Source: J088 sp003695505 [NCBI: Candidatus Dadabacteria bacterium] (GTDB taxonomy: Bacteria; J088). Taken from it: DNA of 14,911 nucleotides. The number at the start of each line of letters is the position of its first letter. Within the stretch, counting starts at the first letter, position 1. The stretch spans positions 1 through 14,911 of the forward strand of contig RFIY01000331.1 in assembly GCA_003695505.1 (NCBI GenBank), given 5' to 3'. Position numbers and translations under genes: made by a program. Shown piece after piece: positions 1-14,911 of the stretch. The notes below the pieces were generated by a model, which was not told the origin of the DNA, searched no databases, and worked only from the letters and a program-made list of their open reading frames with translations.

Positions 1-440
1 ATGCTGCGCGCCGCCGGCCCCTCTCCGACCATCAGATCGATCTCGAAATCCTCCAGCGCCGGATAGAGCATTTCCTCTACTGCCGGTCCCATGCGGTGGA
101 TCTCGTCGATAAACAGTACCGTACCCGGCGCCAGCCGCGCCAGGATTGCAGCCAGATCGCGTGGACGTTCCAGAATCGGCCCGCTCGTCTTTTCGAACGG
201 CGCATTCATCTCCGCGGCCACGATTGCCGCGAGTGTCGTCTTGCCCAGACCAGGCGGACCGCACAACAGCAAATGATCCAGCGGCTCACCCCGCTTGACG
301 GCGGCCTGCGTCGCAACGCGCAGGTTATCTACCGTCTGCCGCTGCCCGGTAAACTCATCGAACGACAGGGGTCGGTGGGCACGCTCGAAGCTCTCGGCCT
401 CGTGTTCCCATTCCAGTTCCTGGTCCGGCGGTGTATACAT
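1..440 (-). CDS. ruvB: Holliday junction branch-migration helicase RuvB, 5' part
   Basis: RuvB is the hexameric AAA+ motor that, with RuvA, drives branch migration of Holliday junctions. The first 146 residues are visible and the gene runs off the left edge; the family is about 340 residues. The N-terminal family segment [11 protein letters not shown] (about 23-33) is followed by Walker [10 protein letters not shown] (61-69) and Walker B LFIDEIHR (109-116), then the conserved [15 protein letters not shown] block (125-139). The ATG at 438-440 lies 4 bp after the ruvA stop, with a GGAG about 13 nt upstream inside ruvA. It is the last visible gene of the yebC-ruvC-ruvA-ruvB operon. Identity is secure; only the C-terminal half is unseen. 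Confidence 0.97.
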
Positions 441-444
441 TGCG

Positions 445-1026
445 TCAGGCCTGCTCCGTCAGTACAAAGCGGATGATCTCTTCGACGTCGCTGTCGGTCA
501 GGCCGCTCTGTATCGCGCGCCTCACCCCTTCCCTGGCCTCGCCTAAAGCATAGCCCAAACCCGCCAACGCCTGCACGGCCGCTTCCATCGGCGACTGTTC
601 CGCAACGGGTCCCGCAGCGGTCGGCACCTGGTCGATCCGGTCGCGCAATTCCACGACGATCAGCTCCGCGGTCCGCTTTCCGATCCCCGGTACAGCCGTC
701 AGCGCACGTACATCCTCATTGACAACCGCTGCGAGAAGCTCCGCAGGGCGAAAGACATCCAGCATGGCGAGTGCCGTCTTTGCACCGACTTTCGGTACCT
801 TTTGCACGAAACGGAACAAATCTCGGGATTCACGATCGAAAAATCCGTACAACTCCCAGCCCTGCTCACGCACAGCCAGGTGTGTCCATACATGCAACCG
901 CTCGCCAACGACCGCCTTGCCACGAACCTGCCCTGGCACCGCAACTTCGTACCCAACCTCGCCGCACAACAACGTCAACGACGTTTCACCCACGGCAAGC
1001 ACGGTTCCCTGAAGATAGCCGATCAC
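445..1026 (-). CDS. ruvA: Holliday junction DNA-binding protein RuvA
   Basis: RuvA is the tetrameric protein that binds four-way junctions and loads RuvB. The 193-residue product starts MIGYLQGTV, the usual OB-fold opening of the family, then has two helix-hairpin-helix segments (about residues 70-125, including [13 protein letters not shown]) and a C-terminal RuvB-interacting domain rich in LAGLGY-type residues. An in-frame ATG at 1033-1035 would add MEP, but a GGGAGG directly abuts that ATG. The GTG at 1024-1026 sits 9 nt after GGGAGG, gives the canonical N-terminus, and overlaps the ruvC stop as GTGA, so I chose GTG. The first hairpin reads [14 protein letters not shown] where most homologues have a GVGPK-type loop; this is a mild divergence. 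Confidence 0.95.
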
Positions 1027-1520
1027 CGGCTCCATCCTCCCGCACGGTCGAGCACCGCACCGATCAACGCATGCGTCATGGCCACGGCGAGTGCATCCGC
1101 CGCGTCTTCTGGTGGCTGTTCCGGAAGATCGAGCTGCATCCGCACCATCGAGCGAACTTCATCCTTTCCGGCCCGGCCATGTCCGGCGACAGTCTGTTTG
1201 ATTCTCGCGGGTGCGTAGCTGCGAGCCTCGAGCTGTCGTCGTCCCACCGTCGCCAGCGCAACACCTCGCGCATGTCCGAGCAATAGCGCACTGCGCACGT
1301 TGCGCCGAACAAAAATATCCTCGATGGCGACAATCTCCGGTTTCCAGGTCTCGATCACTGCGTCAAGCTCGTCCTGTAACGACAACAGCCGCTCGACGAG
1401 TTCGGATCCACGTAGTGAAATCTGTTTCCACGTCACCGCCCGGATCTTCTGCACGCTGGCATAGTCGATGACGCCGATGCCGATCTTTCTCGATCCGGGG
1501 TCGATGCCCAGTACCCGCAT
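1023..1520 (-). CDS. ruvC: crossover junction endodeoxyribonuclease RuvC
   Basis: RuvC is the dimeric Mg2+-dependent resolvase that nicks Holliday junctions bound by RuvAB. The 165-residue protein (E. coli RuvC is 173) opens MRVLGIDPGS. The four catalytic acidic positions are visible: Asp7, Glu67 in VAIEDIF, and Asp139 and Asp142 in PPEDAADALAVAMTH. The reading frame stays open upstream to 1568, but that extension overlaps yebC and lies before the conserved N-terminus. The ATG at 1518-1520 shares one base with the yebC stop (TGATG) and is preceded by GGAAG at a spacing of about 7, so the start is well supported. The 3' end overlaps ruvA by 4 nt, implying translational coupling through yebC-ruvC-ruvA. 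Confidence 0.97.
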   Translation of the reverse strand: MRVLGIDPGSRKIGIGVIDYASVQKIRAVTWKQISLRGSELVERLLSLQDELDAVIETWKPEIVAIEDIFVRRNVRSALLLGHARGVALATVGRRQLEARSYAPARIKQTVAGHGRAGKDEVRSMVRMQLDLPEQPPEDAADALAVAMTHALIGAVLDRAGGWSR

Positions 1521-2278
1521 CACATCGCTTCCGCGATTCGCTCGAGCTCCTCGTCGTCGATCGCGCAATTGTCGTACACTTCCTGAACGTCGTCCAGGTT
1601 CTCCACCGCATCGAGGAACCGGATCACCTGTTGCGCCTCTTTCCCGCTCACCTCGATCTCATTGCTCGCCTCGTACCGCAACCCCGCGTCGACCACCTCC
1701 GCGCCTGCATCGATGACCTTCTGCCGTACCGCACCGAGATCGCTGTCTGCGGTGACCAGTTCCCACGTTCCGTCCTCTTCTCCGGGACGCACGTCTTCGG
1801 CGCCGGCCTCGATCGCCAGCTCCGTCATCGCATCTTCGTCGCGATCATCTCGAACCGTGATCACACCGACGCGGTTGAAGTTCCATGCCACGGATCCACT
1901 TTCGCCAAGTGATCCGCCTGCCTTGCTGAAGGCATGCCGAAGCTCACTGACCGTTCGATTTCGATTGTCTGTCAGACAGTAGACCATCACCGCGACACCG
2001 GCCGGTCCGTAGCCTTCGTACCAGATCTCTTCGATCTCCTGGCCGTCGAGCAACCCGGCGCCCCGCTTGATGGCGCGCTGGATATTCTCATTGGGCATAT
2101 TCTCGGCCATCGCACGATCGACGGCCTGCCGAAGTGCCGCGTTGTACTGTGGATCCGGCCCGCCCTCGCGGGCTGCAACCTGAATCTCACGCCCGAGGCG
2201 CGTGAAGACCTTTCCCTTCTTCTTGTCTTCTTTCGCCTTCTTGTGCTTGATCTTGCTCCACTTGTTGTGGCCAGCCAT
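1520..2278 (-). CDS. yebC: YebC/PmpR (TACO1) family protein
   Basis: The protein is 252 residues, the usual family length, and begins with the diagnostic MAGHNKWSKIKHKKAKEDKK. The central motif YEGYGPAGVAVMV and the segment LTDNRNRTVSELRHAFSKAG are also typical. Members have been described as transcription regulators (PmpR) and, more recently, as ribosome-associated factors helping translation of difficult stretches; which applies here cannot be told from sequence. The ATG is preceded by GGGAG at about 9 nt. It is the first gene of the yebC-ruvC-ruvA-ruvB operon and is divergent from dnaA. The yebC-ruvCAB association is common in bacteria, but placing it beside dnaA is less usual. Confidence 0.95.
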   Translation of the reverse strand: MAGHNKWSKIKHKKAKEDKKKGKVFTRLGREIQVAAREGGPDPQYNAALRQAVDRAMAENMPNENIQRAIKRGAGLLDGQEIEEIWYEGYGPAGVAVMVYCLTDNRNRTVSELRHAFSKAGGSLGESGSVAWNFNRVGVITVRDDRDEDAMTELAIEAGAEDVRPGEEDGTWELVTADSDLGAVRQKVIDAGAEVVDAGLRYEASNEIEVSGKEAQQVIRFLDAVENLDDVQEVYDNCAIDDEELERIAEAM

Positions 2279-2343
2279 TGCTCTTTTCTCCCGCGGACAT
2301 GTCGCAGACAGAGCCCAAAAATCCGGGCTGCTAAGGTGCTACC

Positions 2344-2352
2344 ATCGTATCA
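2344..2352 (-). promoter_or_regulatory. possible extended -10 element for the yebC-ruvCAB operon
   Basis: On the minus strand the sequence reads TGATACGAT, an extended -10 (TGn followed by TACGAT). No good -35 is present at 17 bp (TGGGAA). Transcription from here would start about 60 nt before the yebC ATG. This is pattern-based inference only. Confidence 0.3.
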
Positions 2353-2386
2353 CTTTTTTCGACCCATTCCCAGACACCGATCGCCG

Positions 2387-2415
2387 TTGAAGCATTCGCG
2401 TATTTTGACTATCAT
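2387..2415 (+). promoter_or_regulatory. sigma-70-like promoter for dnaA
   Basis: A TTGAAG hexamer (2387-2392) is followed, after exactly 17 bp, by TATCAT (2410-2415). The two hexamers have two and one mismatches to the consensus. A transcript starting near 2422 would place the DnaA-box palindrome at roughly +28 to +48, a position suited to autorepression. It lies in the divergent yebC/dnaA region. Confidence 0.55.
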
Positions 2416-2449
2416 ATCGCCTCACGACCTGCGGTTGATGCGCTCACAC

Positions 2450-2469
2450 TTTTCCACAATTGTGGAAAA
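2450..2469. promoter_or_regulatory. palindromic pair of inverted DnaA boxes upstream of dnaA
   Basis: The sequence is a perfect 20-bp palindrome. Its left arm contains TTTTCCACA (2450-2458) and its right arm the reverse complement TGTGGAAAA (2461-2469). Each 9-mer differs from the consensus DnaA box TTATCCACA at one base. It sits between the predicted dnaA promoter and the dnaA coding start. Known DnaA biology makes this a likely autoregulatory operator and possibly the upstream arm of oriC. Confidence 0.75.
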
Positions 2470-2527
2470 CTCTGGGGAAATCGCGGGCCTGAAGGATGAT
2501 CGACAACCCTCCAGTCAGACAGTGAAC

Positions 2528-3880
2528 GTGACCGATTCCGCGCAACCACAACTCTGGAATTCTCTGCTGAGCCACCTTGAAGAGGCCCTGCAACCAGAAG
2601 AATACGCGCTCTGGATTCAACCTCTTCAACCGGTCCAGGTCACGGCCAAGGAAATTGTCGCTGGTGTACCGAACCGTTTCTTCGAACAGTGGATTCGCGA
2701 CAACTTCTCTGGTCTGTTCCAGCGGGCCGAACAGGAGTTCGGCGTACCGATCCGGTTCGAGACGTTGCCCGAAGCTGTCACGACCCCGAGCACCACGACC
2801 GGGCCGGCACCGGCGACGGATCCCGTGCCGACGGCTACGGCCAGCAGCCTCCATCCGGATCTCAACTTTCGCTATACCTTTGAGGCATTCGTACCCGGGA
2901 GCTCAAATCAGTTCGCGCATGCGTCCTGCCTCGCCGTCAGCGAACATCCCGGCGCTCGCTATAATCCCCTGTTCCTGTACGGCGGCGTCGGCCTTGGCAA
3001 GACCCACCTGCTGCACGCTACCGGTCACGCCATTTTTTCCGCAAACAACAATGTACGCGTTCTTTACCTGAGTTCCGAGCAGTTCATGAATGAGGTCGTC
3101 AACGCGATCCGCTTCGAGCGAATCGATGAGCTGCGCCACCGCTTTCGCAACCAGTGCGACCTGTTATTGATCGATGACATTCAGTTTCTGTCCGGAAAAG
3201 AACGGACGCAAATCGAATTTTTCCATATCTTCAATGCCCTCTATGAACGTGGCAAACAGATCGTCCTGACCAGCGATTGCGTTCCGCGAGAGATTCCCGC
3301 GCTGGAAGAACGCCTGCGTAGTCGCTTCGAGTGCGGCCTGATCGCCGACATCCAGCCGCCCGAGTTCGAGCATCGCCTGGCGATCCTGCGCAAGAAGGCA
3401 GCCGATCTCGGTTTGCGGATACCCGACGACGTATTGACGTTTCTCGCCACTTATATTCAGTCGAACGTCCGCGAACTCGAAGGCGCACTGACACGTCTGT
3501 CCGCCAAAGCGAGCTTCGAAGGACGTCCGGTCGATGTCGATTTTGCCCGTCGTGTTCTCGGCGACCTGATCGAACTGACGACCCCCGGGGTCAGCGCCGA
3601 CCGTATCCTCAAGGTCGTCGCCGAACTACATCACCTGCGCGTCTCCGACCTTCGTGGCCGCAGCCGCAAGAAAAACATCGCGCGGCCCCGGCAAATCGCG
3701 ATGTATCTCTGCAGGCAGCTTACAGACCTTTCGCTCCCGGAAATCGGGCAGCGATTTGGCGGCAAGGATCACACGACAGTCCTGCACAGTGTTCGCAAAA
3801 TCGAGCAACTCCGTCAGGAAGATCCTGAGCTCGACACCCTCATCCAGGGTTTATCGCGCACCCTCGGTCGTCCTTCCTGA
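2528..3880 (+). CDS. dnaA: chromosomal replication initiator protein DnaA
   Basis: DnaA is the AAA+ initiator that binds DnaA boxes and melts oriC. With the GTG at 2528 the protein is 450 residues. Domain I (1-80) carries the LW...WIQPLQ...PNRFFEQWI pattern. A Thr/Pro-rich linker follows (about 84-107), then domain III from LNFRYTFEAFVPG. Walker A is GGVGLGKTH (152-160) and Walker B LLLIDDIQF (212-220). Domain IV has RGRSRKKNIARPRQIAMYL and the signature GGKDHTTVLHSVRKI (411-425), which contacts the box. The start is uncertain. GTG 2522, GTG 2528 and ATG 2438 are all in frame and none has a well-spaced Shine-Dalgarno; an AAGGA at 2492-2496 is too far from the GTGs. ATG 2438 would place the operator palindrome inside the gene, so I favour a GTG. 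Confidence 0.96.
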   Translation: MTDSAQPQLWNSLLSHLEEALQPEEYALWIQPLQPVQVTAKEIVAGVPNRFFEQWIRDNFSGLFQRAEQEFGVPIRFETLPEAVTTPSTTTGPAPATDPVPTATASSLHPDLNFRYTFEAFVPGSSNQFAHASCLAVSEHPGARYNPLFLYGGVGLGKTHLLHATGHAIFSANNNVRVLYLSSEQFMNEVVNAIRFERIDELRHRFRNQCDLLLIDDIQFLSGKERTQIEFFHIFNALYERGKQIVLTSDCVPREIPALEERLRSRFECGLIADIQPPEFEHRLAILRKKAADLGLRIPDDVLTFLATYIQSNVRELEGALTRLSAKASFEGRPVDVDFARRVLGDLIELTTPGVSADRILKVVAELHHLRVSDLRGRSRKKNIARPRQIAMYLCRQLTDLSLPEIGQRFGGKDHTTVLHSVRKIEQLRQEDPELDTLIQGLSRTLGRPS

Positions 3881-4105
3881 TCCCTTCCCCAACCCCGCTC
3901 CATCCGGGCAACATCCGCCTTGCTCGATCGTCGACCTGTCCATCACCGCCTCCGTGCACCCGCCGCAGGCTGTCAACAACCCGTGGAAAACCTGCTGAAG
4001 ACGCCACCGTTTTTCCACCCACCGAAACACTTCCACACAGGTCCGCCTGGCACCATCCTTATGCCTGCGGAAAACCAGCGAATGTGTCCGCAGCTTTTCC
4101 AAGTA

Positions 4106-4114
4106 CTATCCACA
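4106..4114 (+). promoter_or_regulatory. DnaA box (CTATCCACA)
   Basis: This 9-mer has one mismatch, at the first position, to TTATCCACA. It directly borders the AT-rich segment beginning near 4115, as expected of a box that anchors DnaA next to an unwinding element. Confidence 0.6.
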
Positions 4115-4170
4115 ACCGGAATTTACAATTTATCCTTATGTCATAACGGCTTAATTGGATTCCGTGTATT

Positions 4171-4179
4171 TTTTCCACA
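4171..4179 (+). promoter_or_regulatory. DnaA box (TTTTCCACA)
   Basis: The 9-mer is identical to each arm of the palindrome upstream of dnaA, which suggests TTTTCCACA is the preferred box in this organism. It lies between two AT-rich stretches (4115-4170 and 4197-4230). Confidence 0.6.
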
Positions 4180-4237
4180 GCCCTTTCTCCGTCACTTCAT
4201 GTTTGATTATATTCCGTTAGAAAAAGATCATGACGAG

Positions 4238-4253
4238 GTACGATTCATCGTAC
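4238..4253. repeat. 16-bp inverted repeat upstream of dnaN
   Basis: GTACGAT and ATCGTAC form perfect 7-bp arms around a 2-bp centre. The repeat lies just downstream of the AT-rich segment and about 48 bp before the TATAAT element. It does not resemble a DnaA box. It could be an operator for dnaN-recF or a site for an origin-binding regulator; the binding protein is unknown. Confidence 0.5.
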
Positions 4254-4300
4254 AGACCTGCCGTTGCCACCCGATTCATGCGTACCTCGGCGTCGATGAC

Positions 4301-4306
4301 TATAAT
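4301..4306 (+). promoter_or_regulatory. possible -10 element (TATAAT) for dnaN-recF
   Basis: A perfect TATAAT hexamer stands about 62 bp before the dnaN ATG. No convincing -35 is seen at 16-18 bp; TTCATG at 4275-4280 is 20 bp away. A separate dnaN promoter would fit the long non-coding gap after dnaA, but the call rests on one hexamer. Confidence 0.4.
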
Positions 4307-4368
4307 GGTTCCAGGCACGCATCGACGTGCACCCTGCATACCATCCCGGCGACCGGAGCGGAACCCCG

Positions 4369-5505
4369 ATGACCTGCCTGTTTGAAGTCGATCGCACAGT
4401 ATTCGAAAAAGCGCTGTTTGGCGTCCAGAATGTTGCGCAAAAACGCACCGCAACACCAATTTTGTCCAATACGCGCATCGATGCCGAAACGGGCCGTCTG
4501 CGGCTCTATGCAACCGATTACGACGTTGGCATCACCCAGTGGATCGACGCTGACGTGCAGAATGTCGGCAGTGCGGCGCTCCCGGCGCGCATGCTCTACG
4601 AAATCGTCAAGCGTGGCACTGGGGATCTCGTGCGCATCGAAGTCGACGATCAGCATCAGGCCGTCATTCAGACCGGACCGCGCGCACGCTACAAACTCGT
4701 CGGCATGGAACCGGCTGATTTTCCGGAACCGCCGCCGGTCACCACATCGGCGCGCCTCGAACTCGATCGTGAACTGTTCCGTCTGTGGATTCGCAAGACC
4801 TTGTTTGCCGCCGGTACCGACGACAGCCGGGCCGCGCTGGCCGGGGTCTTTGTCGAACCGTCGGAGCAGGATGACCTTCGACTGGTCGCGACCGATACGC
4901 ACCGGCTGGCAATGGTTGAATTGCCGGGGATCGAGGGCGCGAGCGCGCTACCTGCGGAGGGTGTGATTCTGCCGCGCAAGGCGCTCGGCGAACTGCTGGC
5001 GATCTCGGAAGGCGATGGCACGATCGAACTTGGTGTTCAGGTTCAGGAAGGTGGACAGCAGCAGTACATCCAGGCGCGCTGGGATCAGACCGAGCTACTG
5101 TTCAGGACGGTCGACGGTCGCTTTCCGAGCTACCGGGCGGTCATTCCCGAGGAGACACGTCAGACGGCCGTGATCGATCGGAGCGATTTCATTGCTGCGA
5201 TCGAGCGTGTCAGTCTCGTGATTACCGAGCGGTTTCGTGCCGTGTCCTTGCGTTTTTCAGCGGATACGCTGACGGTGCAGGCACGAAATCCCGAGATGGG
5301 GGAAGGCGAAGAGCAGCTCGACTGCTCGTTCGACGGTGAGGATGGGTTCGAAGTCGGCTTCAATGCACAGTATCTGCAAGATGCGCTCAATCAGATCACG
5401 ACGGATCGCATCGAGCTGCGCATGATCGATGATATTTCACCGACACTGATTTTTGGTGAAGCCGATGAGACGTACCTGAACGTCATCATGCCGATGCGTC
5501 TCTGA
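4369..5505 (+). CDS. dnaN: DNA polymerase III beta subunit (sliding clamp)
   Basis: DnaN is the ring-shaped dimeric clamp that tethers polymerase III and other partners to DNA. The 378-residue protein opens MTCLFEVDRTVFEKAL, typical of the family. It shows the three-domain clamp pattern: LYATDYDVGI and PARMLYEIVKR in domain 1, LVATDTHRLAMVELP in domain 2, and a domain 3 ending in the canonical hydrophobic tail VIMPMRL. Length is close to the usual 366-380. The ATG at 4369 has GGAG 10 nt upstream; an in-frame ATG at 4327 would add 14 residues not expected in the family. recF follows immediately, so the two are probably cotranscribed. Confidence 0.97.
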   Translation: MTCLFEVDRTVFEKALFGVQNVAQKRTATPILSNTRIDAETGRLRLYATDYDVGITQWIDADVQNVGSAALPARMLYEIVKRGTGDLVRIEVDDQHQAVIQTGPRARYKLVGMEPADFPEPPPVTTSARLELDRELFRLWIRKTLFAAGTDDSRAALAGVFVEPSEQDDLRLVATDTHRLAMVELPGIEGASALPAEGVILPRKALGELLAISEGDGTIELGVQVQEGGQQQYIQARWDQTELLFRTVDGRFPSYRAVIPEETRQTAVIDRSDFIAAIERVSLVITERFRAVSLRFSADTLTVQARNPEMGEGEEQLDCSFDGEDGFEVGFNAQYLQDALNQITTDRIELRMIDDISPTLIFGEADETYLNVIMPMRL

Positions 5506-5513
5506 GGTCTCAA

Positions 5514-6620
5514 CTGACTGCGTCAACCGAGGCTGATTTTCCCGTTCTGCGCCCGGCCGTCTCGGCCGATCATCCACCGCGGATCACCGCACTGTCGTTG
5601 CATGGCTTTCGCAACTACCGGGAACCATTTGCGGCCGCATTTGAGCAGCGTATCACTGCAATCGTCGGCCTGAACGGGCGGGGAAAAACGAACCTGATCG
5701 AAGCGATCTATCTGCTTTGCCGTCTGCGGGGGTTTCGCGACGAGAGTCCGGGACGATTGCGTACCTGGGATACGCCGTCCGGCGTTGTCGCCGGTGTGTT
5801 CTCTGACTTCGATCGAGAGGTCGTCATCGGTAGCAATGGACTTGCGTTGAAACAGGATGGCGATCGCGTGCAGGATCGCCGGTCCTGGGTCCGTCAGACG
5901 CCAATTTTTGGTTATCGACCCGATGATGACCTCTTTTTTCACGTCGAACCTGAACAGCGAAGACGCTACCTCGACTGGCTCGCGGCGATGTGCTTTGCGG
6001 ACTATATTCCGACTGCAGCCGCATATCGCAGAGCGCTGCAGCAGCGCAACGCGGCGCTGCGTCAGCGGCTCTCCCGCGTCGAGCGTGAGGTCTGGGATGC
6101 TCAACTGGTCGAGGCCGGATACCGTATTCATTGCGCGCGCAAGGCCGCGGCCGCGCATCTCGGACCCGTATATGCGCAACTGTGGGAAGCGCTGGAGCGC
6201 CCCCCCGCCGAGGTCGTCTATCGATCCAATCTTCCCGAGACGGCAGAAGCGTACGCCGATGCATTGCGGGAGGCTGAGACGGCTGACCTGGAGCGGGGCT
6301 GGACATCGATCGGCGTTCATCGCGATGATCTGGTCGTCTACCGAGAAGGCCGACCTGTTCGTCAGAGCGCCAGTCAGGGGTACCGTAAGCTCACCATCAT
6401 CCTGCTGTCTCTGGCGTGTGCGCTCTGTTTGCCCGGCGCGATGTTTTATATCGACGATCTCGAAGGTGAGCTCGACGACGAGAATGAATCGCGTCTGTTT
6501 TCATTACTCCTGGGGTCGCGGACCCGCCACCTGCAGATGTTTTTTTCGGCCGTACGGACACCCGACGTGTTGTCGCGCCATGACGCCGGGCCGGACATCA
6601 ACTGGATCCGGCTCGCGTGA
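5514..6620 (+). CDS. recF: DNA replication and repair protein RecF (probable CTG start)
   Basis: RecF is an SMC-like ATPase that helps RecOR load RecA at gaps. Walker A is GLNGRGKTN (52-60), a central LQQRNAALRQ matches the family, and near the C-terminus are GVHRDDL, an ABC-type signature SASQGYRK and Walker B FYIDDLEGELDDE. The signature and much of the middle are divergent. No ATG or GTG lies in frame after the upstream stop at 5466. The only standard start, TTG 5598, would remove the first conserved strand ITALSLHGFRNY. The CTG at 5514 lies 6 nt after GAGG (5504-5507, overlapping the dnaN stop) and yields 368 residues, the normal size, so I chose it. A start at TTG 5598 giving 340 residues is the alternative. 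Confidence 0.85.
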   Translation: MTASTEADFPVLRPAVSADHPPRITALSLHGFRNYREPFAAAFEQRITAIVGLNGRGKTNLIEAIYLLCRLRGFRDESPGRLRTWDTPSGVVAGVFSDFDREVVIGSNGLALKQDGDRVQDRRSWVRQTPIFGYRPDDDLFFHVEPEQRRRYLDWLAAMCFADYIPTAAAYRRALQQRNAALRQRLSRVEREVWDAQLVEAGYRIHCARKAAAAHLGPVYAQLWEALERPPAEVVYRSNLPETAEAYADALREAETADLERGWTSIGVHRDDLVVYREGRPVRQSASQGYRKLTIILLSLACALCLPGAMFYIDDLEGELDDENESRLFSLLLGSRTRHLQMFFSAVRTPDVLSRHDAGPDINWIRLA

Positions 6621-6623
6621 CCG

Positions 6624-7925
6624 TCAGCTTGCGTGCTGGTCTGTCGCGTCGAGCGCTTCAGACAGGGCGGTGATGGCCGCGTCGATCGTCGCGTCATCAT
6701 GGCAGGTACTCAGGAAGCCGACTTCATAGCCGCTTGGTGCAAGATACACGCTGCGCGCGAGGGCTTCGTGAAAGAAGCGTCCATACCGCTGATGATCCGC
6801 GGCGCTGATGTCATCGAAATTCCGTGGCGGTTGCTCCGTGAACGCGATGCCGAACAAGGAACCGACGGCCTGTGCGTGCATCGGGATGCCGCGATCCTCC
6901 GCCGCCTTCCGCAGTTGTGTGCAGAGGTGTTCCGCTCGCGCTTCCATCTCGCCGAGCGGGTTGCGTTCCATCAGTTGTTCGAGCGTCACTGCGCCCGCCG
7001 TCGCCGCGACCGGATTGCCGGACAGTGTGCCTGCCTGATAAACCGCGCCTTCTGGCGCGAGATGTCGCATCACCTCGCGCCTGCCGCCATAGGCCGCCAG
7101 CGGAAATCCACCGCCCACGACCTTACCCAGTGCGATCAGATCCGGTTCCAGGCCAAAGCGATGATACGCTCCGCCCATCGTGACCCGGCAGCCCGTCAGG
7201 ACTTCATCGGCAATCAACAACGACCCGTGAGCCCGGCAAAGGCTCTGAACCGCATCGAGAAATTCGGGATCTGGAAGAATCAGCCCCATGTTGCAAGGCA
7301 GCGTCTCGAGGATCACCGCTGCAATGTCGTCCCCGTGTTCCGCAAACAGCTTTCGCAATTGTTCCGCGTCATTGAACGGCGCAATCAGCGTGTCGCGGGC
7401 CGCGCCCGCGGTGACGCCCGGGCTGGACGGCTGACCGAATGTCGCCAGACCGCTTCCGGCGCTGACCAGCAGTGCATCGGCGTGACCGTGATAGCAGCCG
7501 GCGAATTTGACGATCTTGTCGCGCCCCGTCGCTCCCCTGGCAAGCCGCAACGCACTCATCGTCGCCTCAGTGCCGGAGTTGACCAGACGCATCTGTTCCA
7601 TCTCAGGAAACAACCGCCGGATGGCTTCGGCCAGCCGGATTTCGGCGGCGCAGGGCATCCCGAAACTGGTTCCCTTGCGCGCAACCGCGATCACTTCGTC
7701 GACGACGACCGGGTCTGCGTGTCCGAGAATCAGTGGTCCCCAGCTCAGTACGAAATCGATATAGCGGTGACCGTCGACATCGAACAGGTACGCACCTTCG
7801 CCACGATCCGCAAAGATCGGCGTACCGCCAACAGCGCCAAATGCACGGACCGGACTGTTGACGCCGCCCACGAACATTGCACAGGCCGACTGAAAAAGCT
7901 GCTCACTGCGAGGATTGCGATTCAT
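6624..7925 (-). CDS. hemL: glutamate-1-semialdehyde 2,1-aminomutase
   Basis: HemL is a PLP enzyme that converts glutamate-1-semialdehyde to 5-aminolevulinate, the last step of the C5 route to tetrapyrroles. The 433-residue protein has the N-terminal FVGGVNSPVRAFGAVGGTP, the motif NSGTEATMSALRLARG (116-131), CYHGHADALLVSAGSG (144-159), and the PLP lysine Lys268 in ALGKVVGGGFPLAAYGG. Some family blocks vary: ETLPCNMG (207-214) where EPVAGNM is usual, and ADEVLTGCRV (239-248) where FDEVMTGFRV is usual. The ATG at 7923-7925 was preferred to one at 7940 because GGAA precedes it at a suitable distance and family N-termini begin about there. It converges on recF with a 3-bp gap and diverges from the isomerase gene. 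Confidence 0.92.
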   Translation of the reverse strand: MNRNPRSEQLFQSACAMFVGGVNSPVRAFGAVGGTPIFADRGEGAYLFDVDGHRYIDFVLSWGPLILGHADPVVVDEVIAVARKGTSFGMPCAAEIRLAEAIRRLFPEMEQMRLVNSGTEATMSALRLARGATGRDKIVKFAGCYHGHADALLVSAGSGLATFGQPSSPGVTAGAARDTLIAPFNDAEQLRKLFAEHGDDIAAVILETLPCNMGLILPDPEFLDAVQSLCRAHGSLLIADEVLTGCRVTMGGAYHRFGLEPDLIALGKVVGGGFPLAAYGGRREVMRHLAPEGAVYQAGTLSGNPVAATAGAVTLEQLMERNPLGEMEARAEHLCTQLRKAAEDRGIPMHAQAVGSLFGIAFTEQPPRNFDDISAADHQRYGRFFHEALARSVYLAPSGYEVGFLSTCHDDATIDAAITALSEALDATDQHAS

Positions 7926-7968
7926 CACGTTTCCGATCATCCAGGTTTCGCGCGCGTCGATCCGACGT

Positions 7969-7974
7969 TACAAT
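7969..7974 (+). promoter_or_regulatory. possible -10 element (TACAAT) very close to the isomerase start
   Basis: TACAAT lies only 8 nt before the ATG at 7983 and no Shine-Dalgarno is visible. A transcript from this hexamer would begin at or near the start codon, suggesting a leaderless mRNA. A -35 at the usual distance is poor (TTTCGC at 7946-7951), so confidence is low. Confidence 0.35.
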
Positions 7975-7982
7975 AATGGCTT

Positions 7983-8585
7983 ATGAACATTGAACAACAA
8001 CTTGCCGGGCAGGTCGAACGGCATCTGTCCCTGATTCGCGAGCAGAGCGAAATGCTCCGCAATGGTGCGCTCGTTATCGGTGACCGCCTCGCCGAGGCTT
8101 TCCGCCGCGGGCGGAAACTCCTGATTTTCGGAAACGGAGGCAGCGCCGCCGATGCGCAGCATCTCGCAGCCGAACTGGTCAACCGGTACCGGCTCGATCG
8201 GCCGCCGCTTCCGGCCATCGCGCTGACCACCGACACGAGTACGTTGACCTCGATCGCGAACGACGTCGACTACAGAGAGATTTTTGCGCGCCAGGTTCAC
8301 GCACTTGCGGCGCCAGGTGATATCGTTCTGGCGATCAGTACCAGCGGCTCCTCGCCAAACATCATCCAGGGTCTGCGTGCCGCGCGTGAACGGAAGACAT
8401 GGTCGGCGGCGTTGCTCGGCAGCGACGGCGGAGATGCGGCAGGCCTCGCCGATCTCGATCTGATCGTTGCGTCGAATGAAACCGCGCGCATCCAGGAAGC
8501 ACACCTGCTCGTCGAACATATGATTTGCGAAGTCATCGAATTTCGTCTGTTCCGCGCTCCGCTCGCCGACGTGGCCAGCGCCTGA
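7983..8585 (+). CDS. gmhA: SIS-domain phosphosugar isomerase, probable sedoheptulose-7-phosphate isomerase
   Basis: GmhA converts sedoheptulose 7-phosphate to D-glycero-D-manno-heptose 7-phosphate, the first step of heptose synthesis for lipopolysaccharide. The 200-residue protein has the SIS phosphate-binding segments [17 protein letters not shown] (49-65) and [11 protein letters not shown] (118-128). The zinc/catalytic positions of GmhA are kept: His60, Glu64, Gln171 and His179. The paralogue DiaA, a DnaA-binding initiation factor, is also similar ([19 protein letters not shown]), but E. coli DiaA lacks the equivalents of Glu64 and His179, which favours an enzyme. No other heptose gene is nearby. 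maeB follows 42 bp later on the same strand. Confidence 0.8.
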
Positions 8586-8627
8586 CCCAGTCTATTTCAA
8601 CCCGGCTCTTTTCGGAATGAATCGTCC

Positions 8628-10901
8628 ATGAAACAGAAATCGACCAGCTTTGCCCAGGCCGCGTTCCAGTATCACGCCGACGGCCGACCCGGCAAGATCG
8701 AGGTCACACCGACCAAGCCCTGCACCACGCAACGCGACCTCAGCCTCGCCTATACGCCCGGCGTCGCGGATGTCTGTCGCGCGATCGAAGCGGACGTCAA
8801 CCGCGCCTTCGACTACACTGCGCGAGGCAATCTCGTCGCCGTGATCTCGAATGGCACCGCCGTCCTCGGTCTTGGGGACATCGGTCCCCTCGCCGGAAAG
8901 CCGGTGATGGAAGGCAAGGCCGTGCTGTTCAAGCGGTTCGCCGACGTCGATGTCTTCGATATCGAGATCAACGAGAAGGATCCGGATAAATTCATCGAGA
9001 TTGTCGCCGCGCTGGAGCCGACGTTTGGTGGCATCAATCTCGAAGACATCCGGGCACCCGAGTGTTTTGCGATCGAGCAGGCACTGATCGAGCGTCTCGA
9101 CATTCCCGTTTTCCACGACGATCAGCATGGCACCGCGATCATTTCCGCAGCCGCGCTGATCAACGCCGTTGAATTGTCTGGCAAGACGATTTCTTCGCTG
9201 CGCAAGGTCGTCGTCAGCGGCGCGGGTGCCGCATCGATCGCCTGCGTCAAGCTGTTCATCGAACTTGGGCTCGATCCCGGAACGATCTGGATGTACGATT
9301 CCCGCGGCCTGATTCATAGCGGCCGCGACGATCTCAACGCACACAAGGCCGAGTTTGCCCGTGACAGCGACCCGGTGCCGTTCGAGGACGTCTTCACAGA
9401 CGCGGATCTCTTCCTCGGGGTATCGGTCGGTGGCACCGTGACGCAAGAGATGCTTCAGAAGATGGCGGCGAATCCGATCGTGTTCGCGATGGCCAATCCC
9501 GATCCGGAAATCTCATATCCCGATGCCGTCGCGGCGCGATCGGACGTGATCATGGCAACCGGACGTTCCGACTACCCGAACCAGGTCAACAATGTTCTGG
9601 GGTTTCCGTTCATCTTTCGTGGTGCACTGGACGTCCGCGCGCGCGAAATCAACAACGAAATGAAACTGGCGGCAGCCCGGGCACTGGCGGAGCTGGCGCG
9701 GGCGCATGTACCGGAAAATGTCGTGCGCGCCTACGGCGGCGAGCCGATCCAGTTCGGCCGTAACTACATTATTCCCAAGCCGTTCGACCACCGCGTGTTG
9801 TTGTGGGTCGCGCCTGCGGTCGCACGCGCCGCTATGGAAACCGGCGTCGCTCGCCAGCCGATCGACGACTTCGACCAGTATCGCGCCCGGCTCGAATCGA
9901 TGCTCGGACCCGCTCGCGAACTGATTCGCACCAGTATCGATCACACCCGGCAATCCGAACAGCCCGCACGGGTCGCCTTTGCGGATGGTGCAGAAGATGC
10001 CGTACTGCTCGCGATTGAGCAGGCTACAGAAGAAGGCTTCATCCAGCCGATTCTGATCGGCAATCCGTCCCGGATTGAAGCACGAATTCGCGCACTTGGC
10101 CTGCAACTCGACAACGCCGAAATCGTCCATCCCGATGAGCACCCGGAATTCGAGCGATTCGTCGACGAATACTGGCGCAGCCATCAGCGGCAGGGCGTCA
10201 CGCGCAACCGCGCCGAAAAACTGCTCAGTCGTCGTTCCCATTTTGCCGCGGCGATGGTCTCGAACGGGTTGGCCGACATCTATGTCGCTGGTCATACGGA
10301 CCGGTACATGGACACACTCGAAGTAGCCGAAGATCTGATCGGATTGCGTGACGGCGTGCTGCGTCCCGTCGGCGTCACGGCTGTCGTCTACAAGACCCGG
10401 CTGTTCCTGTTTGCGGACACCGCGGTTGCGGTGGATCCCGATGTCGATGAGCTTGTCAACATCGCGCGCTTCGCGGTCGAACCCGCGCCGCTGTTCGACA
10501 TGACGCCACGGGTCGCGTTTCTGAGCTTTGCGAACTATGGTGCCTATCGCCATCCGCAGGTCGACCGCGTTCGGCAGGCTGTCGAGCGCCTCAAAGCGAC
10601 CGGTGCCGATTTTGTCTTTGATGGCGAAATGACGGTCGATGTGGCGTTGAATCAGGAGTTGCGGGACGGCGTCTTTCCATTTTCAGAACTCGATCAGGAT
10701 GCCAATGTGCTGATCTTTCCAAACCTTGCAGCGGCCCAGATCGCCACACAATTGCTTGGGAACGTCGGCGGCGCGGAGACACTTGGCCCGGTTCATCGTG
10801 GCTTCCGCCGCACCGTCGTCATCCTGTCGGCGGGTATGGGTCCCGGAGAGATTCACAACCTTGTGGCACTGGCGGCGGGGCAGCAGGCGATCAGCGCCTG
10901 A
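8628..10901 (+). CDS. maeB: NADP-dependent malic enzyme with C-terminal phosphotransacetylase-like domain
   Basis: The enzyme oxidatively decarboxylates malate to pyruvate and CO2, making NAD(P)H. At 757 residues it matches the MaeB class (about 760), not the short malic enzymes. The N-terminal malic domain has YTPGVA (42-47, catalytic Tyr), the EGKAVLFK catalytic Lys (97), and metal-binding [10 protein letters not shown] (138-147) and [10 protein letters not shown] (162-171). A Rossmann segment [17 protein letters not shown] (194-210) and [13 protein letters not shown] follow. From about residue 435 a phosphotransacetylase-like domain runs to the end; in MaeB proteins it is thought to be regulatory (acetyl-CoA) and not catalytic. 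NADP preference is inferred from class. GGAA precedes the ATG by 10 nt. Confidence 0.95.
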
Positions 10902-10903
10902 TC
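10889..10903. repeat. short hairpin across the maeB stop codon
   Basis: GATCAG and CTGATC form a 6-bp stem with a 3-nt CGC loop that includes the maeB TGA. It has no T-tract on either strand. It lies between the convergent maeB and ptsI genes, which have only 26 bp between their stops. It may be a weak bidirectional stop signal or chance. Confidence 0.3.
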
Positions 10904-10927
10904 ATCGGGCGGACCAGGCACCGGCAA

Positions 10928-12685
10928 TCAGAGCAGATCGGCGAAGTGCTCCTCGGCGAAGTGCCGTAGCAGTTGCTGGACGTCATCAAGATCCGACAGT
11001 GCCATGACGCCCTGAACGAGTTCCTCGGCGACCCGCTGCGGGGTGCGACGGACGATGGCATGGATCCGCGGAATCGCCGTCGGTGCCATGGACAGCGTCT
11101 CGATCCCGAAGCCGAGGAGCAGCGGCACAAACATCGGATCCCCGGCCATTTCACCACAGACACCGACCTCGCGACCTGCGTCGCGGCAGATCTGGGTCAC
11201 CTGGCGCAGCAGGCGCATGATCGCCGGATGCAACGGCGCATACAGGTAATCCACGAGCTCATTCGTGCGGTCAATGGCCAGGACGTACTGGATCAGGTCG
11301 TTGGTGCCGATGCTGAAAAAATCGGCGTCACGCGCCAGCAGATCGGTAATCAGCATGCTCGCCGGCGTCTCGAGCATCACGCCGAGCGGGACAGGATCGC
11401 AGCGCTCTCGTTCGACAATGGCTTCGATTCGCTGACGGGCGAGGCGAATCTCTTCATGGGAGGTGACCAGCGGGATCATGATGCGCACATTGCTGTTGTC
11501 GACTGCACGGGTTGCCCGGCAGATGGCCGTAATCTGCCGGTCGAACAGCGACGTGTTCTGGAGCGAGTAGCGGATGCCGCGCAGGCCCATCGCCGGATTC
11601 TGTCCTGCAGAGAAGGCCAGTGACGTCGGCAGCTTGTCGCCACCGAGATCCATCGTTCGAAACGTCACGAGGCGGCTGCCGAACCGGCGCACGACGCGAC
11701 TGTAGATGCGCGTCAATTCGGCCAGGGATGGCGGACGGTCCCGGTTCAAAAACAGCACCTCGGTTCGATACAGACCGACGCCTTCGGCGCCGCAACGCAA
11801 CGCCAGCGAAGCTTCTTCCGGCGCGTCGATGTTGGCCAGGAACCGGACGCGAAAGCCGTCTGGCGTGACCGCGGGTTCCGCAGCTTCCTGCTGCGCACGC
11901 ACCAGTCGCCGCTGCAGGTCGCGTTGTCGTCGGCGCGCCTGCTGCAGTACGGTGTCTCCCGGATTTACGACGACGATGCCCGTCTTTCCATCGACGACTA
12001 CGGTTGTACCGGACGGAATCTGGTCAGTGGCCTGATCCACCGCCAGAACCGTCGGGATCCCAAATGTTCGGGCAATGATGGCCATGTGACTGACGGCGCT
12101 GCCGGTCTCGGTGACGATACCGGCAACGGGGATCTGCGCCAGTTCGATCATTGTCGCCGGATCAATGCTTTCGGCCACGATGACATCGCCAGGCCCCGGC
12201 TGTCTTGGCCCACCCCGTTTCAACCCGGACAGCTCCAGTACGAGCCGTCGTTCGAGTTGTCGGATATCTTCACCACGAGCGCGCAGGTAGGGATCATCGA
12301 TGGCTTCAAATGCGGGGAGGATTTCTTCAATGGTCTGATGAAGCGCAGCTTCCGCATTGATGCGATCATGCTCGATCCTGCGTATGGTGGGCTCGATGAT
12401 CTGCGGATCGTGCAGCAGCGTGCGCTGCGTTTCGAGAATCAGCCTCGGTTCCTGCGCCGCCTGCCCATCGAGTGACCGCTCGATCTCGATCATGGCGCGA
12501 TCCACGCGATCGATGGCCCGCTCGAAACGTCGGATCTCGGAACCGACCTCGCGATGACGTCGCAGCGTATAATGCGGAACCGCGGCGCCGCGTCCCAACA
12601 TCAGATAAACCGCACCAATGCCAATCCCCGGTGCGCCGGGAATGCCGCGGAGCGCCCCCTCGGACTCGCTGCGCGAGCGCGTCAT
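10928..12685 (-). CDS. ptsI: phosphoenolpyruvate-protein phosphotransferase (PTS Enzyme I)
   Basis: Enzyme I takes phosphate from PEP and passes it to HPr, starting the PTS relay in the cytoplasm. The 585-residue protein (E. coli 575) has the N-terminal GIPGAPGIGIGAVYL. The phosphorylated His200 sits in GSAVSHMAIIARTFGIP. The C-terminal PEP-binding barrel contains FRTMDLGGDK, MLETPAS, FFSIGTNDLIQY and the catalytic Cys510 in VGVCGEMAGDP. The ATG overlaps the ptsH stop by 4 nt (ATGA), implying coupled translation. It is the last gene of the minus-strand PTS operon and converges on maeB. There is no GAF domain, so this is ordinary Enzyme I and not the nitrogen-type EINtr. Confidence 0.96.
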   Translation of the reverse strand: MTRSRSESEGALRGIPGAPGIGIGAVYLMLGRGAAVPHYTLRRHREVGSEIRRFERAIDRVDRAMIEIERSLDGQAAQEPRLILETQRTLLHDPQIIEPTIRRIEHDRINAEAALHQTIEEILPAFEAIDDPYLRARGEDIRQLERRLVLELSGLKRGGPRQPGPGDVIVAESIDPATMIELAQIPVAGIVTETGSAVSHMAIIARTFGIPTVLAVDQATDQIPSGTTVVVDGKTGIVVVNPGDTVLQQARRRQRDLQRRLVRAQQEAAEPAVTPDGFRVRFLANIDAPEEASLALRCGAEGVGLYRTEVLFLNRDRPPSLAELTRIYSRVVRRFGSRLVTFRTMDLGGDKLPTSLAFSAGQNPAMGLRGIRYSLQNTSLFDRQITAICRATRAVDNSNVRIMIPLVTSHEEIRLARQRIEAIVERERCDPVPLGVMLETPASMLITDLLARDADFFSIGTNDLIQYVLAIDRTNELVDYLYAPLHPAIMRLLRQVTQICRDAGREVGVCGEMAGDPMFVPLLLGFGIETLSMAPTAIPRIHAIVRRTPQRVAEELVQGVMALSDLDDVQQLLRHFAEEHFADLL

Positions 12686-12966
12686 TCAGGCTCCTTGTCC
12701 GGATTTGGTCCTGAGGCGAACAGAACTTCCATCGCGGCGACGGCCTCTGCAGCATCGGGTCCTTCTGCCTCGACGAGCAGTTCAGTTCCCGACGGGCAGG
12801 CCAGTGTCAGGATCCCGAGCAGGGATTTTGCATTGATGCGGATGCCGTCGCGAACCAGCCAGATCTGTGCCTCATAGCGGTTCGCCAGTTGTGCGACCCG
12901 GTTTGCCGGTCGCGCATGCAGCCCCTCCGGATTCGTCACACAGACGGTGGTACGGTGTGCAGACAT
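12682..12966 (-). CDS. ptsH: phosphocarrier protein HPr
   Basis: HPr shuttles phosphate from Enzyme I to the IIA domain. The 94-residue protein carries the active-site motif NPEGLHARPA with His17. It also has the regulatory-site motif INAKSLLGILTLAC with Ser48, equivalent to Ser46 of Gram-positive HPr. Conservation of that serine context suggests, but does not prove, control by an HPr kinase/phosphorylase, whose gene is not in the window. The start has a very strong AGGAGGA (12973-12979) that overlaps the end of the IID gene, with the IID stop (TAA) only 3 nt before the ATG. The C-terminal DKEPE tail is a few residues longer than usual. Confidence 0.95.
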   Translation of the reverse strand: MSAHRTTVCVTNPEGLHARPANRVAQLANRYEAQIWLVRDGIRINAKSLLGILTLACPSGTELLVEAEGPDAAEAVAAMEVLFASGPNPDKEPE

Positions 12967-12969
12967 GGC

Positions 12970-13704
12970 TTATCCTCCTGTCATCGCGGCGGCGACGGCG
13001 AGGCCGCTGGCCAGCACGAACCAGATCGGTGCGCTGCGCATCAGTGAACGGCTGCCGATCCAGGCGCCGGCGAGCGCGGCCGTCGCAACCAGCAAGGTCG
13101 CGATCAATGGATCCTGTTCAGCGGTCGCAAGCTGGCCCACCAGGATACCGGCGCCAAACAGCCCCGTCGCCAAACCGGTATTGTTCAAACCCCGCCGGAT
13201 GCGCGGTTTGGCAAGCAGTTTCATGGTCTCGGCGATGTTTTCCGGCTGGTGAATGCCACGATTGAGCAGCCACCATCGCAGCCAGCCCTCGCCGACGAGC
13301 CAGGCGGCGGCAAGGGCCAGCACGGCGTGTGTCCCACCTGCCAGCCACAGCAGCACGGACGCGCCGGCGAAGCACCACGACAATCCCTGCCAGTACAGCA
13401 TGTCGCCCAGTGCGCCAAAGGTACCCATCCAGCGTGTCAGATGTTCGCGCGCGGCGTCAGGATCCGGCGGGTCGCGGTGGAGTTCGCTCAGTGCGGCGCC
13501 AACAATCAACGGTGCCAGCATCGGGTGGGTGTTGAAATGGGTGCTTGCCTGCCGCAGCAGGTCGGCGCGGCGCCGCTCGCTGCCCGACAATCCAGGCATG
13601 GCGGCCCAAAGCCAGCCGCACGTCTGCATGCGTCTGTAGCTCCAGGTCGACTGCAGCAGCAGCAGCCGCAACCAGATCCTGAATCGCGTACTCAGAGGAA
13701 GCAT
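12970..13704 (-). CDS. PTS mannose-family transporter subunit IID
   Basis: IID is, with IIC, the membrane part of mannose/fructose/sorbose-type PTS permeases. The 244-residue protein has the family opening STWSYRRMQTCGWLWAAMPGL (start of this block near residue 20) and the diagnostic block FNTHPMLAPLIVGAALSE. Several hydrophobic C-terminal stretches (for example VLLWLAGGTHAVLALAAAWL and IATLLVATAALAGAWIG) follow. The frame is open upstream to 13893, but that part overlaps the IIC gene and is unlike the family. The ATG at 13702-13704 has AGGAG 11 nt upstream and overlaps the IIC end by 13 nt. It is shorter than E. coli ManZ (about 280). The sugar cannot be told. Confidence 0.88.
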   Translation of the reverse strand: MLPLSTRFRIWLRLLLLQSTWSYRRMQTCGWLWAAMPGLSGSERRRADLLRQASTHFNTHPMLAPLIVGAALSELHRDPPDPDAAREHLTRWMGTFGALGDMLYWQGLSWCFAGASVLLWLAGGTHAVLALAAAWLVGEGWLRWWLLNRGIHQPENIAETMKLLAKPRIRRGLNNTGLATGLFGAGILVGQLATAEQDPLIATLLVATAALAGAWIGSRSLMRSAPIWFVLASGLAVAAAMTGG

Positions 13705-14345
13705 CCGACGACGACTCCTGCAACGAAGGCAGCGATACCCAGCGCACGTTCGGAAGTCCGCGTGCGCCGCAGTGCAAATGCGAGGGCGCTGGACCCGATG
13801 ACCAGGTACCAGCCAGCGATGGGTGGAAATGTTGCCAGCGGCAGTCCAGACATGACGCTGATCAACGCAAACCAGCCGGCCAGAAGCATCCACCGCGCGG
13901 CAAGCGCGACGACCGGATAGGCCAGCAAACCGTCGACCGAGCCACGTTCGAGCTGCCGCAATATGCGTTCGCTGATCAGGCCGAATGCACGCCGCAGGCC
14001 TCCGTCGAACGGAACAAACGCCACGATAGCGATCAATGCCACGAGGATGCCGGCGGCGATGACCGTTCCGGTCGGTGCCGTCAATCCGGCCTGGTGCAGT
14101 ACGATCACGGCCGCGGCCGTGCCGATACCTGACGCCGGCGCACGGATGCCGCCGGCCGGGATCCGGTCGATCCAGACGAATTCGAGAGAGGCGCCGATCA
14201 GCGCGCCAGTCAGCGGCATACCGGCGAGTCCCCCGATCAGCACGCCAGTCGCGACCGGGCGGTGAATCAGGAAAGGACCAATCTCTTCGCGAAGCAATTG
14301 CAACGCGGCCGCTGCCATAATCAGCCCAAGTGTCGTGCCGGTCAT
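13692..14345 (-). CDS. PTS mannose/sorbose-family transporter subunit IIC
   Basis: IIC forms the sugar-conducting membrane unit with IID. The 217-residue protein is almost wholly hydrophobic with about six to seven likely membrane spans. The family pattern HRPVATGVLIGGLAGMPLTG, then GALIGASLEFVWIDRIPAGG, is clear at residues 28-66. It is notably shorter than E. coli ManY (about 266). The ATG has GGAAG about 9 nt upstream. It lies 33 bp after IIB and overlaps IID by 13 nt, so IIB, IIC and IID are probably made together. Substrate specificity is unknown. Confidence 0.88.
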   Translation of the reverse strand: MTGTTLGLIMAAAALQLLREEIGPFLIHRPVATGVLIGGLAGMPLTGALIGASLEFVWIDRIPAGGIRAPASGIGTAAAVIVLHQAGLTAPTGTVIAAGILVALIAIVAFVPFDGGLRRAFGLISERILRQLERGSVDGLLAYPVVALAARWMLLAGWFALISVMSGLPLATFPPIAGWYLVIGSSALAFALRRTRTSERALGIAAFVAGVVVGCFL

Positions 14346-14378
14346 CGTTCCATCTTCCGCCGACCTCCGCGCATCGCG

Positions 14379-14849: not shown

Positions 14850-14911
14850 GAAGCGTTTTTCTCCAGGAGGCGATTGGGAAGGATGATTTGCTCTCGGCCA
14901 TAGGTGGCGGC
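14846..14911 (-). CDS. C-terminal 21 codons of an upstream gene, probably PTS subunit IIA
   Basis: The frame reads AATYGREQIILPNRLLEKNA-S and stops at TGA (14846-14848), overlapping the IIB GTG by 4 nt. The pattern Ala...GREQI...LL resembles the end of mannose-family IIA proteins (GREGI...ELL-like). Such clusters commonly run IIA-IIB-IIC-IID-HPr-EI, which supports the guess. Only the last 21 residues are visible, so other identities (for example the end of RapZ or HPr kinase) cannot be excluded. Confidence 0.5.
   Translation of the reverse strand, partial: AATYGREQIILPNRLLEKNAS

What the first reader, a model, noticed from the sequence alone, without database searches (positions are those of the whole stretch)
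2384..4260. Possible bipartite replication origin flanking dnaA
DnaA-box-like sites occur on both sides of dnaA. An inverted pair lies upstream at 2450-2469, and a cluster lies downstream at 3982-3990, 4011-4019, 4066-4074, 4106-4114 and 4171-4179. The downstream set borders two AT-rich stretches (4115-4172, 4197-4230) in an otherwise GC-rich region. This layout resembles the Bacillus type more than the usual enteric arrangement, in which dnaA and dnaN are nearly contiguous. The genes also diverge from this point, with yebC-ruvCAB on the left and dnaA-dnaN-recF on the right.
Basis: partly seen in the sequence, partly recalled or inferred. Interest (0 to 1): 0.6.

Follow-up and report, generated by a model that had tools for sequence, protein, structure and literature searches.

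The report
Chromosome replication origin beside dnaA
This is very probably the place where an uncultured bacterium from a sparsely sampled lineage starts copying its chromosome, built to an ordinary plan with initiator binding sites on both sides of the initiator gene.

Summary
In detail: all seven DnaA-box-like sites are at the stated coordinates, three perfect and four with one mismatch. The dnaA-dnaN gap holds 5 boxes where 0.07-0.10 is expected. The window's two least stable 50-bp segments lie there, and its GC-skew change-point falls at 4347, far stronger than in 20 other stretches of this genome. Skew here follows the replication strand, not gene direction (22 of 23 stretches), and dnaA has left-arm sign, so the origin is most likely between dnaA and dnaN. 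Against: the right arm is near zero, not positive, and the contig's overall cumulative minimum is at 14523. 'Bipartite' is unproven; the upstream inverted pair could equally be a dnaA operator. Boxes on both sides of dnaA are common (24 of 52 comparison loci, 0.18 expected), and Epsilonproteobacteria have a similar ruvC-dnaA-dnaN origin (PMC5043019). A new member of a known kind, in the only genome held of its phylum.

The parts
2279..2527 (.). yebC-dnaA intergenic region, candidate oriC1 and/or dnaA regulatory region
   Evidence: GC 0.518; 2 perfect boxes where 0.05 sites at <=1 mismatch are expected; overlaps the third least stable 100-bp segment of the window, 2317-2416
2387..2415 (+). promoter-like site TTGAAG-17-TATCAT ahead of dnaA (weak)
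   Evidence: 9 of 12 matches; 1 found in 2200-4500, 0.9 expected by shuffling, so not significant by itself
2450..2469 (.). inverted pair of perfect DnaA boxes, TTTTCCACA-AT-TGTGGAAAA
2528..3880 (+). dnaA (GTG start assumed; another in-frame GTG at 2522)
   Evidence: TIGR00362 DnaA over its cut-off; Pfam PF00308, PF08299, PF11638; the only PF00308 match in the assembly
3982..3990 (-). DnaA-box-like TTTTCCACG
4011..4019 (+). DnaA-box-like TTTTCCACC
4066..4074 (-). DnaA-box-like TTTTCCGCA
4095..4103 (+). weak box TTTTCCAAG, 2 bp ahead of the next box: possible tandem pair
   Evidence: 2 mismatches to TTWTCCACA, 3 to TTATCCACA
4106..4114 (+). DnaA box CTATCCACA, abutting the unstable stretch
4115..4172 (.). 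AT-rich stretch, proposed DNA unwinding element; four candidate DnaA-trios at 4129-4140
   Evidence: GC 0.328; 4120-4169 is the least stable 50-bp segment of the window; trios not significant on their own
4171..4179 (+). perfect DnaA box TTTTCCACA
4197..4230 (.). second AT-rich stretch
   Evidence: GC 0.265; 4199-4248 is the second least stable 50-bp segment
4347..4347 (.). GC-skew change-point of the contig
   Evidence: skew -0.172 left, -0.010 right, log-likelihood gain 24.2; next best of 20 other stretches 7.5
4369..5505 (+). dnaN
   Evidence: TIGR00663 over its cut-off; Pfam PF00712, PF02767, PF02768
5598..6620 (+). recF
   Evidence: TIGR00611 over its cut-off

Best explanation
The dnaA-dnaN intergenic region (3881-4368, core about 3982-4248) is the chromosomal origin oriC of this bacterium. 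DnaA, made by the adjacent gene, binds the five boxes, assembles from the box (or weak tandem pair) at 4095-4114 toward dnaN, and opens the AT-rich duplex at about 4115-4230, where helicase is loaded. The inverted pair at 2450-2469 is a high-affinity DnaA site just ahead of dnaA that represses dnaA, or forms the second sub-origin of a bipartite oriC, or both. Shown here: the boxes, their enrichment, the computed instability, the skew change-point and the gene order. Inferred: binding, unwinding, initiation, and any role of the upstream pair.
For: 5 boxes in 488 bp against 0.097 (sample) or 0.075 (whole assembly) expected. The two least stable 50-bp segments of the window border the boxes; 2 of 60 sampled stretches (10 of them wholly masked, so 2 of 50 readable) hold a 50-bp segment as unstable as the first. 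The skew change-point at 4347 has a gain of 24.2 against at most 7.5 in the 20 sampled stretches of at least 8 kb. Plus-strand skew has the same sign in genes of both directions in 22 of 23 stretches, Pearson r 0.86, and ORFs of at least 200 aa show no strand preference (127 against 124), so skew here marks the replication strand. dnaA, though a + strand gene like dnaN, has skew -0.115 against dnaN +0.057 (Fisher P 0.001); 2 of 177 ORFs are as negative on their coding strand. That places dnaA in the left arm and the switch between dnaA and dnaN. DnaA matches TIGR00362 over its cut-off and keeps the DNA-binding domain, with RPRQ and DHTTVLH stretches (seen; that these contact the box is recalled). 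rpmH lies on another contig (C20) with no <=1-mismatch box in the 3.1 kb around it, and the best GIDA match (C313, taken to be mnmG) has none in 3.4 kb.
Against: The right arm does not turn clearly positive: +0.038 at 4369-6620, -0.054 at 6621-10250, 0.001 at 10251-14911, so the contig-wide minimum of cumulative skew is at 14523. At fourfold-degenerate sites dnaA is not so extreme: 17 of 177 ORFs are as negative. Four of the five gap boxes have a mismatch. The trios are not significant given the box (P 0.28 for four or more, 0.60 for three or more). No relative within the phylum is held, so conservation of the sites could not be tested. The assembly is in 395 contigs at 84.5% completeness, so a rival site could be missing, and only 59 of 395 contigs were sampled for the skew and stability controls.
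Confidence: 0.88

Rival explanations
1. True bipartite origin: the upstream pair (oriC1) and the downstream cluster (oriC2) act together, with DnaA bridging them across the dnaA gene and unwinding in oriC2.
For: Two box groups flank dnaA, and the least stable DNA is beside the downstream one, as described for Epsilonproteobacteria and Helicobacter pylori (PMC5043019, abstract and passages) and defined in PMC4285127 (passages). Two or more box-like sites on both sides occur in 24 of 52 comparison loci with dnaN downstream, where 0.18 loci are expected from the loci's own background rates, so something selects for boxes on both sides in many lineages.
Against: Two boxes are a small cluster, and a dnaA operator explains them equally well. 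Co-occurrence in other loci does not show a joint function, since autoregulation would also produce it.
Confidence: 0.4
2. The upstream inverted pair is only an autoregulatory operator of dnaA, and the origin is continuous in the dnaA-dnaN gap.
For: It sits between a weak promoter-like match (2387-2415) and the dnaA start, and direct DnaA binding at the dnaA promoter is reported for E. coli, B. subtilis, Vibrio harveyi, Streptomyces lividans and slow-growing mycobacteria (PMC8203912, passages). Another box cluster in this genome lies ahead of a ribonucleotide reductase gene, as expected of a DnaA regulon.
Against: The promoter match is no better than chance (1 found, 0.9 expected). Autoregulation and a sub-origin role do not exclude each other.
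Confidence: 0.45
3. The origin lies elsewhere and these are only regulatory DnaA sites.
For: Box clusters also occur outside origins (PMC5043019, passage; and contig C373 here); the right arm lacks positive skew; the assembly is incomplete.
Against: Boxes, instability and skew change-point coincide in one 488-bp gap. None of the other 50 readable sampled stretches has more than 3 boxes in 488 bp, and none of the 20 tested has a comparable change-point. The rest of the assembly was not tested in this way: one search listed 100 of its 434 places.
Confidence: 0.08

Closest known systems
Epsilonproteobacterial oriC (ruvC-dnaA-dnaN, e.g. Arcobacter butzleri, Wolinella succinogenes, Sulfurimonas denitrificans; PMC5043019, abstract and passages)
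   Same: ruvC upstream of dnaA, boxes on both sides of dnaA, unstable region in the dnaA-dnaN gap
   Different: Their DnaA box core is TTCAC, which none of the seven boxes here has. Here yebC lies between ruvC and dnaA, ruvA and ruvB follow ruvC, and dnaN is followed by recF where that paper gives gyrB
Bacillus subtilis oriC (bipartite, oriC1-dnaA-oriC2, basal unwinding system; PMC4285127 and PMC8287927, passages)
   Same: Boxes on both sides of dnaA; box with possible weak tandem partner followed by an AT-rich stretch with candidate trios. The dnaA-dnaN-recF order is given in PMC4285127 as conserved in some species; that B. subtilis has it is recalled
   Different: rpmH, which PMC4285127 lists upstream of dnaA in the conserved cluster, is on another contig here, and only two perfect boxes lie upstream and one downstream
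Escherichia coli oriC
   Same: Cluster of 9-mer boxes beside an AT-rich element (recalled)
   Different: In E. coli oriC is separated from dnaA (PMC8287927, passage); here it adjoins it

Membership tests
Bacterial oriC | Cluster of DnaA boxes in an intergenic region | tested here: met
   5 in 488 bp, 0.075-0.097 expected
Bacterial oriC | AT-rich, unstable element next to a box | tested here: met
   4120-4169 and 4199-4248 are the least stable 50-bp segments of the window; the box at 4106-4114 abuts the AT-rich stretch
Bacterial oriC | GC-skew minimum of the replicon | tested here: inconclusive
   Strong change-point at 4347, but right arm near zero and contig-wide minimum at 14523; replicon not closed
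Bacterial oriC | Replication starts here | not testable with these tools
   needs marker frequency or a plasmid assay
Bipartite oriC | Boxes on both sides of a spacer gene, usually dnaA | tested here: met
   2 upstream, 5 downstream; whether two boxes count as a cluster is open
Bipartite oriC | One of the two sub-regions harbours the unwinding element | tested here: inconclusive
   The least stable DNA is downstream, but 2317-2416 upstream is the third least stable 100-bp segment; instability is computed, unwinding was not tested
Bipartite oriC | Both sub-regions contribute to initiation, DnaA bridges them | not testable with these tools
   experiment needed
Basal unwinding system (BUS, PMC8287927) | DnaA box, spacer of 0-16 bp, at least three DnaA-trios | tested here: inconclusive
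   Found at 4106 (spacer 14, four trios, weak tandem box) and 4171 (spacer 16, three trios), none in 2279-2527. Of 2000 resampled gaps, 19.6% held any such hit and 0.15% one with box <=1 mismatch, second box and four or more trios; trios given the box P 0.28
Epsilonproteobacterial oriC | TTCAC core of the DnaA box | tested here: not met
   none of the seven boxes has it
Epsilonproteobacterial oriC | ruvC-dnaA-dnaN gene order | tested here: inconclusive
   ruvC is upstream of dnaA on the opposite strand, but with yebC between

The most novel reading that the evidence does not exclude
A bipartite origin of the ruvC-dnaA-dnaN type, described as typical of Epsilonproteobacteria, exists in another lineage held as a single genome, with ordinary CCAC-type boxes; the layout would then be either ancestral or reached twice.
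Probability: 0.3. Interest if true: 0.4.

Novelty: new member of a known kind. Interest (0 to 1): 0.22.

Why it matters
It gives a precise, testable origin for a lineage of which one genome is held, and fits the view in PMC4285127 that origins with boxes on both sides of dnaA may be more common than once thought (24 of 52 loci here). It changes no general picture of replication initiation.

Tried and rejected
A sample of 60 stretches from 59 contigs was used; about a third of them were picked because one search shows a box-like site on them, the rest by contig number. Ten proved wholly masked; the box counts, which included them, were redone on 50 stretches. The 222 windows of 4.4 kb and the 20 stretches of at least 8 kb are unaffected, as each masked contig is under 3 kb. 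The 20 stretches include two halves of one contig (C202).

Skew explained by gene direction: rejected, 22 of 23 stretches with enough ORFs on both strands agree in sign; the remaining one has a value that prints as zero on one strand.

Origin at rpmH or mnmG: no <=1-mismatch boxes in the stretches around the rpmH hit and the best GIDA hit. On the rpmH contig the nearest such site is about 1.6 kb away. The second GIDA hit (C38) holds one one-mismatch site inside it and was not looked at further.

DnaA-trios as proof of unwinding: rejected as weak. Placement of the organism by a DnaA tree of 66 rows (the window and 65 of 68 loci; L005, L024, L093 left out by the script for stops or length): unresolved, bootstrap not settled; the window row pairs with L015, titled a Proteobacteria MAG, at 95/95 on long branches. 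Search for papers holding ruvC, dnaA, yebC and oriC together: 0 found. YebC, RuvC or RuvA beside dnaA in the comparison set: 0 of 68 loci by tblastn at E 1e-4, a weak test because RuvC is short and the flanks differ in length.

Comparison loci: the first count (23 of 51) dropped L005 because no stop was found before dnaN; the recount gives 24 of 52. Left out: 15 loci without a DnaN hit and L067 with dnaN on the other strand. L015 and L098 have short upstream stretches (113 and 90 bp).

Full report
Setting. The window is the whole of contig C29 of a fragmented assembly (2,829,385 bases, 395 contigs, 84.5% complete), and that genome is the only one held in its phylum. By BLAST-type comparison its DnaA is at most 50% identical to those of the 54 other genomes with a match, of 58 searched besides its own, and at most 48% to the 28 named loci (a pattern-based scan). 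Genes: ruvB (cut), ruvA, ruvC and yebC on the - strand; dnaA, dnaN and recF on the + strand; then hemL (-), an SIS-domain gene, a malic enzyme with a phosphotransacetylase domain, and PTS genes (the partial RuvB, one of two RuvC models and some others score below their cut-offs, RuvC being over that of TIGR00228).

Observation. Three are perfect, four carry one mismatch. The clustering is beyond chance by shuffling and by the genome's own rate: 5 in 488 bp against 0.097 from a sample (P 6.5e-8) and 2 in 249 bp upstream (P 0.0012), or 0.075 from the whole assembly (P 1.8e-8). The AT-rich stretches coincide with the window's two least stable 50-bp segments, 4120-4169 and 4199-4248.

Where the origin is. 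Gene direction does not set skew in this genome. In 23 sampled stretches with at least 1.5 kb of ORFs on each strand, plus-strand skew agreed in sign between the two directions in 22, with r 0.86, and ORFs do not favour the G-rich strand (127 against 124). Skew can therefore be read as a replication-strand mark. In the window it changes at 4347 from -0.172 to -0.010, with a log-likelihood gain of 24.2 against at most 7.5 in 20 other stretches. dnaA and dnaN run the same way, yet dnaA is -0.115 and dnaN +0.057 (Fisher P 0.001); 2 of 177 ORFs are as negative as dnaA over all sites, though 17 of 177 are at fourfold-degenerate sites. This puts dnaA in the left arm and the switch in the gap that holds the boxes and the unstable DNA.

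Against. The left arm is unusually strong: -0.17 over 4.4 kb exceeds all 222 sampled, overlapping windows of that size, whose largest absolute value is 0.117. The right arm is weak and mixed: +0.038, -0.054 and 0.001 in three stretches. So the contig-wide cumulative minimum is at 14523, not in the gap, and the minimum over 1-7000 is at 4828, inside dnaN. A rearrangement on the right or a real asymmetry are possible; I cannot tell.

Mechanism. A weak box at 4095-4103 and the box at 4106-4114 abut the first unstable stretch and point into it, as in the basal unwinding system of PMC8287927 (passages). The rules given there yield a candidate with spacer 14 and four trios at 4129-4140. The full combination arises in 0.15% of 2000 resampled gaps, but given the box four or more trios are expected in 28% of shuffled AT-rich stretches, so the trios add little. 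DnaA matches the N-terminal, ATPase and DNA-binding models of Pfam and aligns over residues 8-440 to the solved DnaA 8btg (that 8btg is B. subtilis DnaA is recalled).

Bipartite or not. PMC4285127 defines a divided origin as two sub-regions each with a box cluster, one with the unwinding element (passages). The layout fits, with the reserve that the upstream side has two boxes. Of 52 comparison loci with dnaN downstream of dnaA within 3 kb, 24 have two or more box-like sites on both sides, 9 upstream only, 10 in the gap only and 9 neither; 0.18 with both are expected from background (16 of 68 loci left out; dnaA and dnaN ends taken from tblastn). So the layout is common. The same upstream boxes could serve autoregulation, known in several bacteria (PMC8203912, passages). 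I put about 0.4 on a functional two-part origin.

Comparison. The closest described case is the ruvC-dnaA-dnaN origin of Epsilonproteobacteria, with unwinding in the dnaA-dnaN gap (PMC5043019, abstract and passages). Its TTCAC box core is not met here, and yebC intervenes between ruvC and dnaA. Placement of this organism is not resolved by the DnaA tree, and I did not establish which of the unnamed relatives, if any, are Epsilonproteobacteria.

Verdict. An ordinary, well-marked oriC in a little-sampled lineage; a new member of a known kind.

Noticed in passing
L100 (G000:C373) 7624-7744: Second-densest box cluster in the sample: two perfect TTTTCCACA and one one-mismatch site, about 135-255 bp ahead of the likely start (7879) of a vitamin B12-dependent ribonucleotide reductase gene (NF005736). 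DnaA control of nrdAB is known in E. coli (PMC8203912, passages). One paper search for DnaA box, nrdJ and ribonucleotide reductase gave a single Cupriavidus genome paper, seen in the listing only.
   Followed up: partly
window 1-4347: Left-arm GC skew of -0.17 is stronger than any of 222 sampled 4.4-kb windows of the genome, while the right arm is near zero.
   Followed up: partly
window 1-2527 and G000:C20:15336-15464: dnaA is not beside rpmH, which lies on another contig; yebC-ruvCAB takes that place. None of 68 comparison loci showed YebC, RuvC or RuvA near dnaA by tblastn.
   Followed up: partly
L064, L065, L070, L072 (unnamed relatives): dnaA-dnaN gaps with 7 to 13 box-like sites in 219-352 bp, much denser than here.
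   Followed up: no
10 of 60 sampled stretches of G000: Returned wholly as N, each under 3 kb; left out of the final counts.
   Followed up: no
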